This document shows, one piece after another, positions 10,344 through 17,657 of a DNA stretch of 64,000 nucleotides. Numbering within the stretch: the stretch's first letter is position 1; every line of letters begins with the position of its first letter. Source of the DNA: Candidatus Thiodiazotropha sp. (ex Myrtea sp. 'scaly one' KF741663) (GTDB lineage: Bacteria > Pseudomonadota > Gammaproteobacteria > Chromatiales > Chromatiaceae); NCBI GenBank assembly GCA_025655555.1, contig JAHXIQ010000001.1, forward strand, positions 558,001-622,000, given 5' to 3'. The position numbers and the translations under genes were made by a program. The notes beneath the pieces were generated by a model. It was not told where the DNA came from. It did no database searches and was given only the letters and a program-made list of their open reading frames with translations.

Positions 10344-11558
10344 TCAGCTCCCGTAATGTTGTTTCACGTAAGTATCCACCAGTTCAATGAACTGATCTGC
10401 AATATTGTCGCCCTTCAGGGTGACGGTTTTTTCTCCATCCACATAGACCGGTGCAGCAGGCGACTCGCCGGTACCCGGCAGACTGATACCGATATTCGCC
10501 TGCTTACTCTCTCCAGGCCCATTGACCACGCAACCCATCACCGCTACTGAGAGATTCTCCACACCCGGATAGACCGCTTTCCACTGAATCATCCGCTCTC
10601 GCAGATGCTGTTGCACCTGCTTGGCCAGATGCTGGAAGTAGGTACTGGTGGTCCTTCCACAACCGGGGCAGGCTACAACCATCGGGGTAAACGCGCGAAT
10701 CCCCATGGATTGAAGCAGTTCCTGCGCCACCACCACCTCCTGTGTTCTCGCCCCGCCCGGTTCCGGCGTCAAAGAGATGCGGATGGTGTCGCCGATCCCC
10801 TCCTGCAGCAGCACCGCCAGTGCGGCACTGGATGCCACCATACCCTTGGAGCCCATACCTGCCTCGGTCAGACCGAGATGCAGCGCATAATTGCAGCTTT
10901 GCGCCAGTGACCGATAAACCGCAATCAGGTCCTGTACCCCGCTCATTTTACAGGAGATCACAATACGGTCGGGACCCAATCCCAATGCTTCCGCCCGCTG
11001 CGCACTCTCCAGCGCAGACACCACCATGATCCGATAGGTCATGTGTGTGGCATCCAATGGATTGTCTGAGCGGGAATTCTCATCCATCAGCCGGGCCACC
11101 AGTCCCTTATCCAAACTGCCCCAATTAACACCGATTCGCACCGGCTTGTCATAACGGCAGGCGGTCTCGATCATGCTGGCAAACTGACTGTCGCGCTTTT
11201 CGCCACTGCCCACGTTACCTGGATTAATGCGATATTTCGCCAGCGCCTCGGCACAGGCGGGAAAGTCACTCAGTAAACGGTGGCCATTGAAGTGGAAATC
11301 ACCGATCAGGGGCACATCAACGCCCCGGCCCACCAAGCGATCCCGTATTTCCGGCACTGCCCTGGCTGCAGCCTCGTTATTGACCGTGAGGCGAACCAAC
11401 TCCGATCCCGCAGCGGCAAGCGCCATGACCTGCTCAGTGGTTGCATCCACATCAGCCGTGTCGGTATTGGTCATTGACTGCACCACGACGGGGGCACTAC
11501 CACCGACTTTCACACCGCCGATAAGGACGGCACGGGTATCCTGTCTCTCAATTGCCAC
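10344..11558 (-). CDS. ispG: 4-hydroxy-3-methylbut-2-enyl diphosphate synthase IspG
   Basis: 404 aa, GTG start (GTG GCA ATT GAG). Reductively converts MEcPP to HMBPP in the MEP isoprenoid pathway. N-terminal TIM barrel with conserved [18 protein letters not shown] and RINPGNVG; C-terminal 4Fe-4S domain with CPGCGRTT and GCVVNGPGE supplying the three cysteines and the glutamate ligand. Length is typical of the short bacterial form. In many gammaproteobacteria it lies upstream of hisS; here a GlcG-like gene follows instead. Confidence 0.97.
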
Positions 11559-11654
11559 GCTCTCGCTGCCTCACTCCAATCACTGGAGGTTGAGGATACC
11601 AAAATAGCCCTCTCGTGATTACCTGTGTTTTCAGGATAAATAATGTTTCCCGAA

Positions 11655-11681
11655 AAGAAAAAAGCCGCCCGAAGGCGGCTT
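11655..11681 (-). terminator. Rho-independent terminator of the 778-aa unknown gene
   Basis: Leftward strand: AAGCCGCC-TTCG-GGCGGCTT (11681-11662) followed by a T run (A run on the plus strand, 11655-11663). It lies about 20 bp beyond the stop at 11703. Confidence 0.85.
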
Positions 11682-11702
11682 AAAACCCTTAATGACTCTG
11701 GG

Positions 11703-14039
11703 CTATTCCGTTCGCTCTTTGACCAGACGGGCCTCTACTACTGGTTCAACTGACGAAGACAACACCCTCGATGGCGGGCAAGGGATGGGTTTCTTCATCA
11801 ACGCGAAAGCCGAGGTATCGTGACTCTCATATTGACGAATCCGGCTGAAACCATTCCGTGTCCGGGGATTGGCGTGGAGCTCAACCGCGAATGCACAACG
11901 GGTATAGGGTCCGTTGCTACCGATCTGGCGCAGCAGATGGTCCACCCCCGCATCCAGATTGGTCGGTGTGTGGGCAGGTGTGGTGGAACTATCACTCTCC
12001 ACCGTGGTACCCGAGATGCCTCGTTTGATCGACAGGCTGTAGCTGGCGAGGAAATCCCTTTCCGGCGGCAACTTATGGTAGGCCACATAGGTCACCCTCA
12101 CCTGGTCGGTGGTACCGTCGTTGTACTCGATGAACTGACATTCACCGGTGGGGGAACCGCCCAGACCCACTGACTGAATATCGGCAGTGGTGTCGGTATT
12201 GTCTACCCACAGATTAAAATGCACGCTGCCATCAGGTTGCACGTGAGGATTATCATCCACCGGCCAGATACCGCCGACCGCATCCGAGGTTGGCAGGAAG
12301 AAAGTCCAGTCAGTGCCCGGTGCTGTTGGGTCAAGACGATTACCCGCGGCATCGAACATTTCCAGACGCAGCACATAGCGGCCATCGGCAACCTGGGGTA
12401 CATAGCGGTTTAGATCAGCGTCCCACAAGGCGGTATGCCACAGTGCGAAGGCACGGTCGTTTCGATTGAGTGCAATCCAGTCCTTGGCGGGATCGGGCAC
12501 CTTGAACAGACTGGGTTCGCCTCCGACGGCAAAAGGTCCCAGCTCCTCTGGCACAATAAAGAAGTTGCTGCCGATCTGGGTCAGATACCGATGAGTGATG
12601 GGTGCATTCAGATAGCTCCAGCTCGATGTACCTTCCGGGGCAACCGACCAACGATAGTGGGCGACACCTTTGCTTGTCAGGCTGTCGTGGAACTGCATCC
12701 GCACATCCAGCCGGGTACCGTAGGGGTCGGTAGCATTGTAGAGTCCCCGGTCGGTATTCGGAATATCAGCCGGCTTCAGGTGGGCCTGCTCAATCTGGTA
12801 CCAGCCGTCGTCGCCAATACCCAGAGGCATGACATAAATCCCCGGCTTGTCGGTATCGTCGTTGGGATTACAGACGACGGTTTGCGCGTCATGGGTCAGC
12901 AGACTGACCAGTTTACCGCTGGGATGATTCCAGTAGGTATGACACAACACGGGATAGCGAGCGTAGATCACCCGATCGATGCCTTCAATGGACTGACGGA
13001 CCTTGAACCAGAGATCCGGCTGGTCCTTGCGACAGATAGACAGTGGGACCAGGGTTGAAAAACTGCCGTCCGACTGCAATTGCGCCGTGCCGAGTTTTTC
13101 CAGACCATAGAAGCGGCACCACGGCCACCACAGCCAATGAATCCAGGGATACCAGCAGAGCCAGAAGCGAAATGTCTGAAACTGCTCAACCAGGAGATGT
13201 CGAAACTGCTGGGTGTTTGTATAGAGAACCTTTGAGAGTTGCACATCCCCACTGATGGAGGAGTTCAACCAAAGCTGCTTCTCACTTGCCTGCATTGCAG
13301 CCAGATTTTGATCCAATCGCAAGCGGGCCGTATCCATGGCTGCCACGCGCTGAGTGGCGAACGACCAGGCTGGTGGCAGTTTGGCAAGTTTTGCCTGCAG
13401 ATCTTCGATAAAGGGCGGTCTGGGACGCGGCGGCGTGCCACACCAGTCGTCATCATCAATGTCACACCATTGGGGGAGTTCTTCCGGTTGCCGGATATCG
13501 AATGGCGGTGGATCCAACACCAGGTCGATAATTCCGTCACGGATGCGTTCAATCACAATATCCGGAATTTTCAGCAGACAGTAGACATCCACATCATAGA
13601 TATCCACCTCACCGACACAGACCGGATATTTTTTTCCATCTGCCCACTTGTCCACGGTACCCGTAACCAGATAGGGCACTTTGATCCAGCAGATCCAGAC
13701 GGGGTGTGGAAGTGTGATGGTTGGGATATCCGCCAACCTTGGCAGATCGTCGAGACGATGTGTCGACAGCTTCTGGCGGGCGATTTCCCTGACTGACTCC
13801 GTGCTGGGGCCAATCTTTACCGTCAAACTCTTCTCGTTACCGCTTTCCAAGCCTTCAAAAAGCGCACTTCCCATCCCAGACTTCCTGGGTTCCTGTTTTA
13901 CCGCCGCTTTCGCCAACAGGCGACCGGACTTGTGATAGAGATAAGCTGATATCTCCGGCCATGATTGCTTGTCATCTAACGCCTGAAGCTCAAGATTGAT
14001 CTTCAGACTGTTTCCCTTCGATTTCCTTGATGTCGCCAT
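11703..14039 (-). CDS. Unknown 778-aa protein, divergent from two other unknown genes
   Basis: Not recognised. ATG 14039 is chosen because AAAGGAGAAAGGAT stands directly before it. No signal peptide. Residues about 100-175 contain VTGTVDKW..KYPVCVGEVDIYDVDVY, resembling a carboxypeptidase-regulatory or transthyretin-like beta module; a second such feature, AQLQSDGSFSTLV...PDLWFKV, occurs near 320-350. Between them is an extremely Trp/aromatic segment (FWLCWYPWIHWLWWPWC, near 293-309). Pro-rich CGTPPRPRPPF and Asp-rich CDIDDDDWCG precede it. The C-terminal 300 residues look beta-rich and Asp/Gly rich, ending in a basic tail. It is divergent from the 434- and 195-aa unknown genes and closed by its own terminator, so the three may be one functional unit (inference). 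Confidence 0.8.
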   Translation of the reverse strand: MATSRKSKGNSLKINLELQALDDKQSWPEISAYLYHKSGRLLAKAAVKQEPRKSGMGSALFEGLESGNEKSLTVKIGPSTESVREIARQKLSTHRLDDLPRLADIPTITLPHPVWICWIKVPYLVTGTVDKWADGKKYPVCVGEVDIYDVDVYCLLKIPDIVIERIRDGIIDLVLDPPPFDIRQPEELPQWCDIDDDDWCGTPPRPRPPFIEDLQAKLAKLPPAWSFATQRVAAMDTARLRLDQNLAAMQASEKQLWLNSSISGDVQLSKVLYTNTQQFRHLLVEQFQTFRFWLCWYPWIHWLWWPWCRFYGLEKLGTAQLQSDGSFSTLVPLSICRKDQPDLWFKVRQSIEGIDRVIYARYPVLCHTYWNHPSGKLVSLLTHDAQTVVCNPNDDTDKPGIYVMPLGIGDDGWYQIEQAHLKPADIPNTDRGLYNATDPYGTRLDVRMQFHDSLTSKGVAHYRWSVAPEGTSSWSYLNAPITHRYLTQIGSNFFIVPEELGPFAVGGEPSLFKVPDPAKDWIALNRNDRAFALWHTALWDADLNRYVPQVADGRYVLRLEMFDAAGNRLDPTAPGTDWTFFLPTSDAVGGIWPVDDNPHVQPDGSVHFNLWVDNTDTTADIQSVGLGGSPTGECQFIEYNDGTTDQVRVTYVAYHKLPPERDFLASYSLSIKRGISGTTVESDSSTTPAHTPTNLDAGVDHLLRQIGSNGPYTRCAFAVELHANPRTRNGFSRIRQYESHDTSAFALMKKPIPCPPSRVLSSSVEPVVEARLVKERTE

Positions 14040-14295
14040 ATCCTTTCTCCTTTCTTCGACATGATCGGGCTCAAACACGAACCCATATGCATACAGTGAT
14101 CCACCAGCAACTACGGCGGAGCATGCCTTCACCACACATCACAATTGCGTGACTGCGATAACGAACACCACCTTTGTAACAGGGGAGACCCGTTGTGCCA
14201 TGTGAATAATTCACATCGACAGAGATAACTAATTCACTGTTTGACGAAGTACCGGCATCTACTCTGGCTACACAAACACACAAAGGAGAATTGAC
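14040..14295. promoter_or_regulatory. Divergent intergenic region of the unknown three-gene locus
   Basis: 256 bp between opposite starts, with strong Shine-Dalgarno sequences at both ends (AAAGGAG on the minus side; AAAGGAG 6-7 nt before ATG 14296). It must hold promoters for both directions if the locus is expressed. I see no clear operator palindrome. A start-like ATTCACATCG...CACTGTTTGACG area near 14207-14246 could carry a -35 element, unproven. Confidence 0.45.
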
Positions 14296-15600
14296 ATGGA
14301 AAACTCGTTAGCCTGCTGCCCCGAACTCCCAGATGGGAAGAAGTGCGACTACCTGGACTTCGTCTATCGTCTAACGCATCTGGCCACGGTTAGTGGCAAT
14401 GATCGAACTCACCGGGTACCGGTGGAGGTCGCGCTACATATCCGTCTGGAACGTTGTACAGGACCGATGGAGCTGGGGAACCTGGTCTACAGCACCACCC
14501 TGCTGCCCGGAGAAAAAGTCCGTCTGTTCAGTCTCGATCGACGTTCCCGTTTCACATTCGACAGTGAGACCCAGCTCTCCTACCGCCACGAGCGCATGGC
14601 CGAAGAGCAGTTCTACATGGATTCAGTGGATCGATTTATGTCAGATCTGGAATCCAGCGATCAAAGCTCATCCTCATCCAGCTCATCGGGTTCTGCTTCC
14701 AGCTCCGGTGGCACAAGCGGCATTTTTGAAACTATTTTCAGCGGCCCATCGGTCAGCGTATCCGGTAGCTACAATGCCCAATCGACCCACGCGTTCCTGC
14801 GTGAACTCAATGCGCATGCGGAGTCTTCCCATAACCGATCAGTACAGATGACCCGGGAATCGAGTTCAATCTCAATCGGTGAGGTCTCCTCCCGCCAGCA
14901 CGTGGAAGGGGAAAGTGAAAGCCACCTGGAAAGCAGCAGCCGCACCTTTTCGAATCCCAACCGATGCCGGGCCGTGAGCTACATGTTCTATCAAGTGAAC
15001 AAAGTCCAGACTGTTAAATTGACCATCCAGGCGGTACGCACACGGGTCATCGATCCTGCCGGTAACAACTCCGTGGTAAACCGCCCGATCGCCAGAGATC
15101 CTCAACTGACCACCATACCCGCAGGTGTCCTGGCTAACTCCAGCAAACTGCCGGAGTTGCAGGCCGCGTATCTGGCAACAGAACTGCAGACACCTCAATT
15201 GAGCAGCTTTCGGCGCATCAATGTCGCCTCATTGGGTGCGATTAACACCAATCAGGAACCTATCAGTCAGGAACTCAACACCAAGGCCATAAGCGCCGTA
15301 CAGGGTGACTTGCAGAAAAACGGCATCCTCGACGCCAAGGGGAATGTCACGAAAGAGATCCGTGCCGAAATGGAGTTTTCTTTCCGCACCAGCCTGCCCA
15401 CACCCGGCGTGGTCGTAAGAGGTTGCCTCGATGATTGCCAGACCTGCGAGCCTGCGCTTGAGGAGAGTATCAAGATCGAGCTGGAGCACCAGCGCCTACA
15501 GAATGAACTGCTGAAAAAGCAGATCGATCTGCTGGACAAATCACAAGAGTACCGTTGTTGTCCGGTGGATGAATCAGAAGAGGCGCCTTGCCCGGAGTAA
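14296..15600 (+). CDS. Unknown 434-aa protein with serine tract and cysteine-rich ends
   Basis: Not recognised. No signal peptide. The N-terminus has ACCPELPDGKKC; residues 45-100 form a well-defined block (RVPVEVALHIRLERCTGPME, LLPGEKVRLFSLDRRSRFTF). Residues about 122-142 are a serine/glycine linker (SSDQSSSSSSSSGSASSSGG). A second serine-rich, glutamate-rich stretch (SSSISIGEVSSRQHVEGESE) follows. The C-terminal quarter has RGCLDDCQTCEPALEE, then a helical coiled coil (IELEHQRLQNELLKKQIDLL) and finally YRCCPVDESEEAPCPE. Paired cysteines at both ends suggest metal binding or disulfides. It has an AAAGGAG start and a 99-bp gap to the next co-directional unknown gene. Confidence 0.85.
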   Translation: MENSLACCPELPDGKKCDYLDFVYRLTHLATVSGNDRTHRVPVEVALHIRLERCTGPMELGNLVYSTTLLPGEKVRLFSLDRRSRFTFDSETQLSYRHERMAEEQFYMDSVDRFMSDLESSDQSSSSSSSSGSASSSGGTSGIFETIFSGPSVSVSGSYNAQSTHAFLRELNAHAESSHNRSVQMTRESSSISIGEVSSRQHVEGESESHLESSSRTFSNPNRCRAVSYMFYQVNKVQTVKLTIQAVRTRVIDPAGNNSVVNRPIARDPQLTTIPAGVLANSSKLPELQAAYLATELQTPQLSSFRRINVASLGAINTNQEPISQELNTKAISAVQGDLQKNGILDAKGNVTKEIRAEMEFSFRTSLPTPGVVVRGCLDDCQTCEPALEESIKIELEHQRLQNELLKKQIDLLDKSQEYRCCPVDESEEAPCPE

Positions 15601-15699
15601 AGCACGCAGTCAGCGCACGCAGAAGGACCCGAATAGGACTTAACAGCTTTCGGGTCCTTCCCCAACCCGTGAAAAATACCCGTCAACAGGAGGCCTATC

Positions 15700-16287
15700 A
15701 TGGCTAAGAGACAGACAAACAAGGGCTACACCAAAGCTGTACACCAGTCACGACCGGACTGGGATTACTATCTGCCAAAGGTTGATAAAAGCATCATCAA
15801 GAAGCTGGAAAAGAAACCCATCTTCCCCAAAGTGTGCGATCGGCCCTGCACAAAGGTCATGACCCTGTTTCCAGAGGATTCGGTCAACGGTCACTCTGGC
15901 AAGGGCTACCATATGATTAACATCGACGGTTACAGAACCATCAATGCCTATGTCATATCAGATGCACTCAACAGTACCACTCAGCGGGGCTTCACGCTGG
16001 AACTGAGCTTTTCTGTTAACGACTTCGTCTATGGTGTCGGCGTGATTGGAGAAACCAGCCACTTCTTCAATTTCGACAGCTACTTCAATCCCGGTAACGC
16101 CAGCCACAAAACCATTCGGATCGAGACCAATGATCTCACCACAACGGGTGGGCTTCCCTGGATTGGGGGCACTGATTTGACCCATATCCTGCGCGTCCCT
16201 GTTCTGGGCCCCTATGTCCGCGCCAGCGTCTTCAATGAAGACGACACGGCACGCCGGGTTGAAGTCAAAGCCTATCTATCGACTTGA
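15700..16287 (+). CDS. Unknown 195-aa beta-rich protein, third gene of the unknown locus
   Basis: Not recognised. Strong AGGAGG RBS before ATG. The basic N-terminus (MAKRQTNKGYTKAVHQSRPD) includes KVCDRPCTKV; the rest alternates polar and hydrophobic residues as in a beta sandwich (TLELSFSVNDFVYGVGVIGE; VPVLGPYVRASVFNEDDTAR, then RVEVKAYLST at the end). The ending pattern, V-x-G-P-Y-V-x-x-x-V-x-N-x-D, is common in secreted or structural jelly-roll proteins, but there is no signal peptide. It is followed by a terminator at 16339-16367. Co-directional with the 434-aa gene, so probably in one operon. Confidence 0.82.
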   Translation: MAKRQTNKGYTKAVHQSRPDWDYYLPKVDKSIIKKLEKKPIFPKVCDRPCTKVMTLFPEDSVNGHSGKGYHMINIDGYRTINAYVISDALNSTTQRGFTLELSFSVNDFVYGVGVIGETSHFFNFDSYFNPGNASHKTIRIETNDLTTTGGLPWIGGTDLTHILRVPVLGPYVRASVFNEDDTARRVEVKAYLST

Positions 16288-16338
16288 GCGCAGAGATGAC
16301 ACATGATGTCGTTTCGTGTGGCTCACTAAGATTAGAAT

Positions 16339-16367
16339 AAAAAAAGCCCGGCACTATGCCGGGCTTT
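16339..16367. terminator. Hairpin terminator between the unknown locus and sqr
   Basis: AAAGCCCGGCA-CTA-TGCCGGGCTTT (16343-16367), a perfect 11-bp stem. The A run at 16339-16345 gives the U tract for the leftward sqr transcript; the TTT on the other side is short, so rightward termination is weaker. Confidence 0.85.
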
Positions 16368-16388
16368 CTGATGCGAGAAGCGTATCGT

Positions 16389-17657
<1,269 letters not shown>

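What the first reader, a model, noticed from the sequence alone, without database searches (positions are those of the whole stretch)
11655..16367. Divergent three-gene locus of unrecognised proteins
Three genes (778, 434 and 195 aa) have no family I can name, yet each is well-formed with a strong RBS, and the pair of divergent transcripts is bounded by two clear terminators. They share no signal peptide, high Trp/Cys/Ser oddities and beta-rich segments. The compact organisation suggests one system, for example a structural, adhesive or injected complex, but the function is not visible in the sequence.
Basis: partly seen in the sequence, partly recalled or inferred. Interest (0 to 1): 0.75.

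Follow-up and report, generated by a model that had tools for sequence, protein, structure and literature searches.

The report
Small islet with unnamed gene pair
Three real but unnamed genes sit in a small insertion in a clam-symbiont bacterium; relatives of two of them lie side by side in several unrelated bacteria, so they may work together, but what they do is still unknown.

Summary
In detail: three intact genes (778, 434, 195 aa) with good ribosome sites, purifying selection (dN/dS 0.04-0.08), no signal peptide, and no family in Pfam, PHROGs, NCBIfam or PADLOC. The genome is Candidatus Thiodiazotropha-like. The locus is an islet between ispG and an SQR-type flavoprotein gene: of 19 genus genomes scored, 13 have the empty site, 3 the full islet, 2 only the 434-aa gene (P2), 1 another insert. 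'One three-gene system' is only partly right. P3 was found in 3 of 56 relatives. P1-like and P2 genes are neighbours in five lineages (Gammaproteobacteria, Bacteroidota, a Desulfurivibrio-labelled MAG), and a divergent P1/P2 remnant lies at another site in the genus. But each is often alone, and their presence is not correlated in the set I tested. P2 keeps 10 of 11 cysteines in 16-18 of 18 sequences, its tree mixes phyla, and a giant-virus protein matches its model. P1 has a conserved C-terminal part; two of seven groups carry other N-termini. Best reading: P2 is a scaffold or metal-binding base for modular P1-type partners. The function is not shown.

The parts
11662..11681 (-). intrinsic terminator after P1
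   Evidence: 8-bp stem, 6 GC pairs, then TTTTCTTTTC; fold -19.7 kcal/mol, z -3.1 for 11655-11705
11703..14039 (-). P1, 778 aa: N-terminal beta module, low-confidence middle, conserved beta-rich C-terminal part (about 440-735)
14040..14295 (.). 256-nt divergent intergenic region with the RBS of P1 and P2; its P2-proximal part is kept beside the P2 remnant in G006
   Evidence: the simple scan found no sigma-70-like promoter here
14296..15600 (+). P2, 434 aa: long strands (read as a beta-sandwich), a helical insert with a Ser/Gly-rich stretch, long C-terminal helix, ten conserved cysteines
15622..15660 (+). 12-bp hairpin without U-tract between P2 and P3 (possible processing or stability element)
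   Evidence: -29.5 kcal/mol, z -2.5 for 15597-15702; similar in L012 (z -2.9), no significant fold in L013 (z -1.0)
15700..16287 (+). P3, 195 aa, lineage-restricted
16341..16369 (.). strong hairpin shared by P3 (+) and the convergent flavoprotein gene (-)
   Evidence: 13-bp stem; -40 kcal/mol, z -6.6 for 16285-16375

Best explanation
Shown: the locus is a genomic islet, P1-like and P2 genes recur as neighbours, the P2 tree mixes phyla, and all three genes are under purifying selection. Inferred: P2 is a soluble scaffold whose conserved cysteines either bind metal or cross-link it, with a beta-sandwich, a Ser/Gly-rich helical insert and a C-terminal helix for assembly. P1-type proteins dock on P2 by their shared C-terminal part, possibly Ig/FN3-like, and present an N-terminal module that can differ. 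P3 is a local add-on, perhaps made from the P2 transcript. The particle would be made in the cytosol (no signal peptide) and either acts there or leaves by a route not visible here.
For: P1-like beside P2 in Thiodiazotropha, G055, a Desulfurivibrio-labelled MAG, Lutibacter and G412; 5 changes (gains or losses) of that state on the 18-row P2 tree. Divergent P1/P2 remnant at a second site in G006. What links window P1 to the MAG/G412/G346 group is the C-terminal part alone (hhalign prob 97.1 over 443-733), and Lutibacter joins through that group (94.9). Ten cysteines kept in 16-18 of 18 P2 rows. AU tests reject one clade for the gammaproteobacterial rows (p 2.7e-31) and for the Bacteroidota rows (p 1.6e-49). 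P1 model: 8 PDB matches at E<=0.001, 7 of them Ig/FN3 proteins such as RbmA (class names recalled). Selection.
Against: No contact between P1 and P2 is shown. Presence is not coupled: 10 of 24 against 8 of 15, in a set I chose. 12 of the 18 rows of the P2 tree have no P1 neighbour. Five groups of the P1 family align nearly along their whole length or from residue 104, so only two groups show another N-terminus. Models are weak (P2 pLDDT 63.8, pTM 0.54; P1 50.8, 0.36); the Ig/FN3 matches have query TM-scores of 0.11-0.15, rmsd 9.9-26.9, and the table does not say which part of P1 aligns. Lutibacter's protein matches window P1 directly only at prob 9.7.
Confidence: 0.37

Rival explanations
1. 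P1 and P2 are independent genes that merely travel in the same small islets; adjacency reflects shared insertion habits, not shared function.
For: Each is often alone; presence is not correlated; G001 and G003 carry P2 at the ispG site and a different P1-like gene elsewhere.
Against: Neighbours in five lineages with three different arrangements (divergent; P1 upstream; P1 downstream), although P1-like genes occur in about 6 of 369 sampled class genomes.
Confidence: 0.24
2. P1/P2 are parts of a conflict or effector system in which a hydrolase (protease or lipase) is the active agent and P1/P2 carry, gate or are cut by it.
For: Different hydrolases lie next to P1/P2 genes: Peptidase_C70 proteins in Lutibacter and G412, a trypsin-like protein (below Pfam cut-offs) by the P1-like gene of G346 and an S8 subtilase by that of G237, an LCAT-like protein by P2 in L018, a patatin-like protein (recalled motif, not searched) by P1-like in L015. 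A NACHT protein and a trypsin-like protein lie near the distant P2 of G234.
Against: No such enzyme in the window's islet. Proteases immediately adjacent in 4 of about 22 loci, a hand count in which most neighbours were judged by eye; binomial p 0.011 with an assumed 2% base rate, chosen after the fact. No PADLOC match for 7 proteins.
Confidence: 0.2
3. P2 is a cysteine/metal protein of sulfide or redox metabolism.
For: Ten conserved cysteines; C-x3-C-x2-C in 16 of 18 rows. P2 lies next to, or one gene from, an SQR-like flavoprotein gene in Thiodiazotropha and next to one in the G433/G594/G507 group; the SQR names are mine, from sequence.
Against: In Thiodiazotropha the flavoprotein gene is there with or without P2; I saw none by eye beside P2 at the other loci.
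Confidence: 0.12
4. P2 is a pore-forming or insecticidal-type beta protein.
For: The best but non-significant PDB matches include Cry78Aa, Tpp80Aa1 and aerolysin.
Against: Best E 0.34, prob 0.07, TM about 0.1: no better than chance.
Confidence: 0.05

Closest known systems
Ig/FN3 proteins such as Vibrio cholerae RbmA (biofilm scaffold; role recalled)
   Same: P1's model matches RbmA at E 4e-4 over 310 columns
   Different: Query TM-score 0.11, rmsd above 21 for RbmA; no Ig/FN3 family above cut-off; no signal peptide; low-confidence model
Uncharacterized 642-aa protein A0A5K0U6Q4 of Yasminevirus (giant virus)
   Same: Match to the P2 model at E 4.5e-16, prob 1.00, 23% identity over 330 columns: a likely P2 relative
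   Different: Longer, viral, no known function; TM-scores 0.40/0.28; only the listing row was seen
Carboxypeptidase-regulatory / Big_6 beta domains
   Same: Weak matches in P1 relatives (Big_6 E 0.013; CarboxypepD_reg E 0.19)
   Different: Below curated cut-offs; window P1 itself has none

Membership tests
Ig/FN3-domain proteins (P1) | profile match above curated cut-off | tested here: not met
   Pfam: 0 families for P1; relatives sub-threshold only
Ig/FN3-domain proteins (P1) | Ig-like beta-sandwich fold | tested here: inconclusive
   7 of 8 PDB matches at E<=0.001 are Ig/FN3 proteins, but query TM 0.11-0.15 and model pLDDT 50.8, pTM 0.36
Secreted adhesins | signal peptide or membrane anchor | tested here: not met
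   first 40 residues max KD11 0.57/0.93/0.06 against 2.09 and 2.78 for two controls; max KD19 1.2 or less (simple hydropathy only)
Aerolysin/Cry-type pore formers (P2) | significant fold match | tested here: not met
   best E 0.34
Phage or phage-tail-derived structures | match to phage proteins | tested here: not met
   PHROGs nothing better than E 1.8; P1 and P2 none in 50,697 phage records; P2 and P3 none confirmed in viral contigs. P3 in phages and P1 in viral contigs were not searched
Known anti-phage defence | PADLOC model match | tested here: not met
   0 of 7 proteins
P2 family (defined in this work) | significant profile match with the conserved cysteines | tested here: met

The most novel reading that the evidence does not exclude
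P2 founds an unrecognised protein family spread over at least three or four bacterial phyla and into a giant virus. It works with modular P1-type partners, whose N-terminal module some lineages have swapped, as a transferable, cytosol-assembled display or delivery device, in some lineages together with hydrolases.
Probability: 0.2. Interest if true: 0.75.

Novelty: new variant of a known kind. Interest (0 to 1): 0.5.

Why it matters
It describes two conserved families that the libraries used here miss, shows that one of them mixes across phyla and probably has a relative in a giant virus, and gives a concrete, testable pairing in symbionts of lucinid clams. If the pair proves to be a modular display or delivery device, it would be a way for bacteria to act on neighbours or hosts that I found no record of in four literature searches.

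Tried and rejected
Plasmid and phage origin: P1 and P2 in plasmids and phages and P3 in plasmids gave no match; two distant P2 relatives and one P1 relative in plasmids gave none. PDB sequence searches gave chance-level rows or none. No Rfam family in 11000-17000. Recent foreign origin by composition: rejected, GC3 of the three genes (0.62-0.64) equals the window mean (0.62), and their dS against L013 (1.1-1.2) equals that of the neighbouring flavoprotein gene (1.15), so the islet is older than that split. P3 relatives: three genomes only; the G036 hit holds four stops, and the 46-residue L014 piece (E 0.31) is not a P3 remnant by eye. A P1-P2 presence correlation failed. In the class sample 2 of 369 genomes carry both (hypergeometric p 0.002-0.003), but one is the window's own genome and both helped build the P1 profile, so I do not lean on it. 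Literature: four searches; I saw the listings with the first lines of abstracts and opened no paper; nothing in them on these genes, which does not show that none exists.

For this I lowered the best explanation from 0.40 to 0.37 and the novel case from 0.22 to 0.20, and raised the 'independent genes' rival from 0.22 to 0.24.

Full report
What is there. The three genes are real. P1 (11703-14039, -), P2 (14296-15600, +) and P3 (15700-16287, +) have good ribosome sites. Between the window and L013, dN/dS is 0.078, 0.044 and 0.042, with dS 1.1-1.2; the neighbouring flavoprotein gene has dN/dS 0.015 and dS 1.15. Terminator-like hairpins lie at 11662-11681 and 16341-16369; the second also serves the convergent neighbour. 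None has a hydrophobic N-terminus or TM-like segment by a simple hydropathy scan.

Where it is. The window lies in a genome of 3.98 Mb. Its closest named relatives in genome contigs are MAGs called Candidatus Thiodiazotropha (P2 99% identical in L012), symbionts of lucinid clams (host names in the record titles). No Pfam, PHROGs or NCBIfam profile names the three proteins, and PADLOC has none.

It is an islet. I searched the neighbouring flavoprotein (16392-17657; SQR-type by my reading) in 22 genus genomes: 19 had it at E<=1e-150; G011, G014 and G017 did not and are not scored. By tblastn on those 19 loci, 13 have ispG within 0.07-0.58 kb of it (empty site), 3 (G000, G018, G013) have P2 and P3 there, 2 (G001, G003) have P2 alone, and 1 (G006) has none of them within 1.5 kb; that P1 completes the islet in G000, G018 and G013 is seen. 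In G006 the site holds a TonB-receptor-like gene and others (by eye), and a divergent remnant of P1's 3' part (476 nt, 88%) and P2's 5' part with its upstream region (208 nt, 81%) lies at another site. So the divergent P1/P2 pair has existed at two places in the genus.

Distribution of P2, own or centre genomes counted. Relatives: 8 of 56, with G011 split and G006 a remnant. Gammaproteobacteria: 6 of 369, one marginal (G234, E 9.8e-4). Phylum of G403 (a Flavobacteriaceae record): 8 of 395, G507 in two pieces. Family of the Reinekea genome: 1 of 22, which is that genome itself. Phylum of the Desulfurivibrio-labelled MAG: 2 of 395, namely the MAG itself and a fused 886-aa protein in G981 (E 1.2e-6). 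A partial copy lies in a Caldithrix MAG. It is rare but wide. Its tree (18 rows; L012/G018, the broken copies, L022, L035 and L120 left out) mixes phyla: AU tests reject one clade for the gammaproteobacterial rows (p 2.7e-31) and for the Bacteroidota rows (p 1.6e-49). Long branches (G412 above all) and possibly mis-binned MAG contigs (L015 is a 6.4-kb contig) are caveats. A Foldseek search of the P2 model in BFVD gives one match at E<=0.001, an uncharacterized Yasminevirus protein (E 4.5e-16, 23% identity over 330 columns, TM-scores 0.40/0.28).

P2 anatomy. AlphaFold (18 rows; pLDDT 63.8, pTM 0.54) gives long strands, which I read as a sandwich, helices 102-116 and 164-189 around a disordered Ser/Gly-rich stretch, and a long helix 386-419. 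Ten of 11 cysteines are kept in 16-18 of 18 rows. No PDB fold matches significantly (best E 0.34).

P1 family and linkage. P1-like genes lie beside P2 in the full islets (divergent), in G055, G412 and Lutibacter (upstream, same strand) and in the Desulfurivibrio-labelled MAG (downstream). This state needs 5 changes, gains or losses, on the P2 tree; if the MAG and Thiodiazotropha inherited one adjacency, there were four gains and a loss. The G055 case came from a single-sequence search with window P1 (E 2.3e-9). Profile comparison ties window P1 to the solo Thiodiazotropha genes (prob 98.4), to G055/G371 (99.4) and to G077 (99.9) nearly end to end, to G237 (99.8) from residue 104, and to the group of the MAG, G412 and G346 through 443-733 only (97.1); Lutibacter joins through that last group (94.9), not directly (9.7). 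So the C-terminal part is the common core, and two of the seven groups carry other N-termini. The P1 model is poor (pLDDT 50.8); 7 of its 8 PDB matches at E<=0.001 are Ig/FN3 proteins (RbmA, E 4e-4), with low TM-scores and without a stated range in P1.

Evidence against a fixed system. P1-like genes stand at other sites in nine further genus genomes, two of which (G001, G003) also carry P2 (five of these loci inspected and one, three not), and without P2 in G371, G346, G077 and G237. 12 of the 18 rows of the P2 tree have no P1 neighbour (L068 is a 3.1-kb contig, so its far side is unseen). In the chosen set of 39 genomes, P1-like genes are found in 10 of 24 with a P2 hit (G006 remnant and marginal G234 counted) and 8 of 15 without. 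P3 is in 3 of 56 relatives plus one chance hit, no other fetched locus holds it, and it was not searched in the wider genome samples.

Context leads. Hydrolases lie next to several P1/P2 genes elsewhere: Peptidase_C70 (L017, L069), S8 (L131), a trypsin-like protein below cut-offs (L129) and an LCAT-like protein (L018); a NACHT protein and a trypsin-like protein lie near the distant P2 in L035. By hand and after the fact, 4 of about 22 loci have an adjacent protease; this is only a lead. P2 beside SQR-like flavoproteins in two lineages is another; in Thiodiazotropha that gene is there with or without P2.

Verdict. A confirmed islet with a recurring P1-P2 neighbourhood and a local third gene. 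The mechanism (P2 scaffold, P1 modular partner docked by its C-terminal part) is inferred, and I give it 0.37.

Noticed in passing
ispG to flavoprotein-gene site, window 11558-16389, and L121: This intergenic site is a variable insertion point in the genus: empty in 13 of 19 genomes, all or part of this islet in 5, and a TonB-receptor-like gene with others in G006.
   Followed up: partly
L016 (G011), L070 (G507), L022, L023/L026 (G006): P2 copies that are split, partial or reduced to a remnant, which suggests ongoing loss.
   Followed up: partly
L120:7877-10534: 886-aa protein of a genome in the phylum of the Desulfurivibrio MAG, with a P2-like region behind an N-terminal beta module that looks carboxypeptidase-regulatory-like by eye: a possible natural fusion (no Pfam match).
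   Followed up: partly
L120:99-947: 282-aa ORF that seems made largely of tandem GYPAGGVRM repeats.
   Followed up: no
L129:2409-4532: 707-aa trypsin-like protein with a long KEKPEPKEL-type repeat tail, next to a P1-like gene.
   Followed up: no
window 15622-15660: 12-bp hairpin between P2 and P3 without U-tract, similar in L012 but not significant in L013.
   Followed up: partly
L067, L068, L070: In another phylum P2 also lies next to an SQR-like flavoprotein gene.
   Followed up: no
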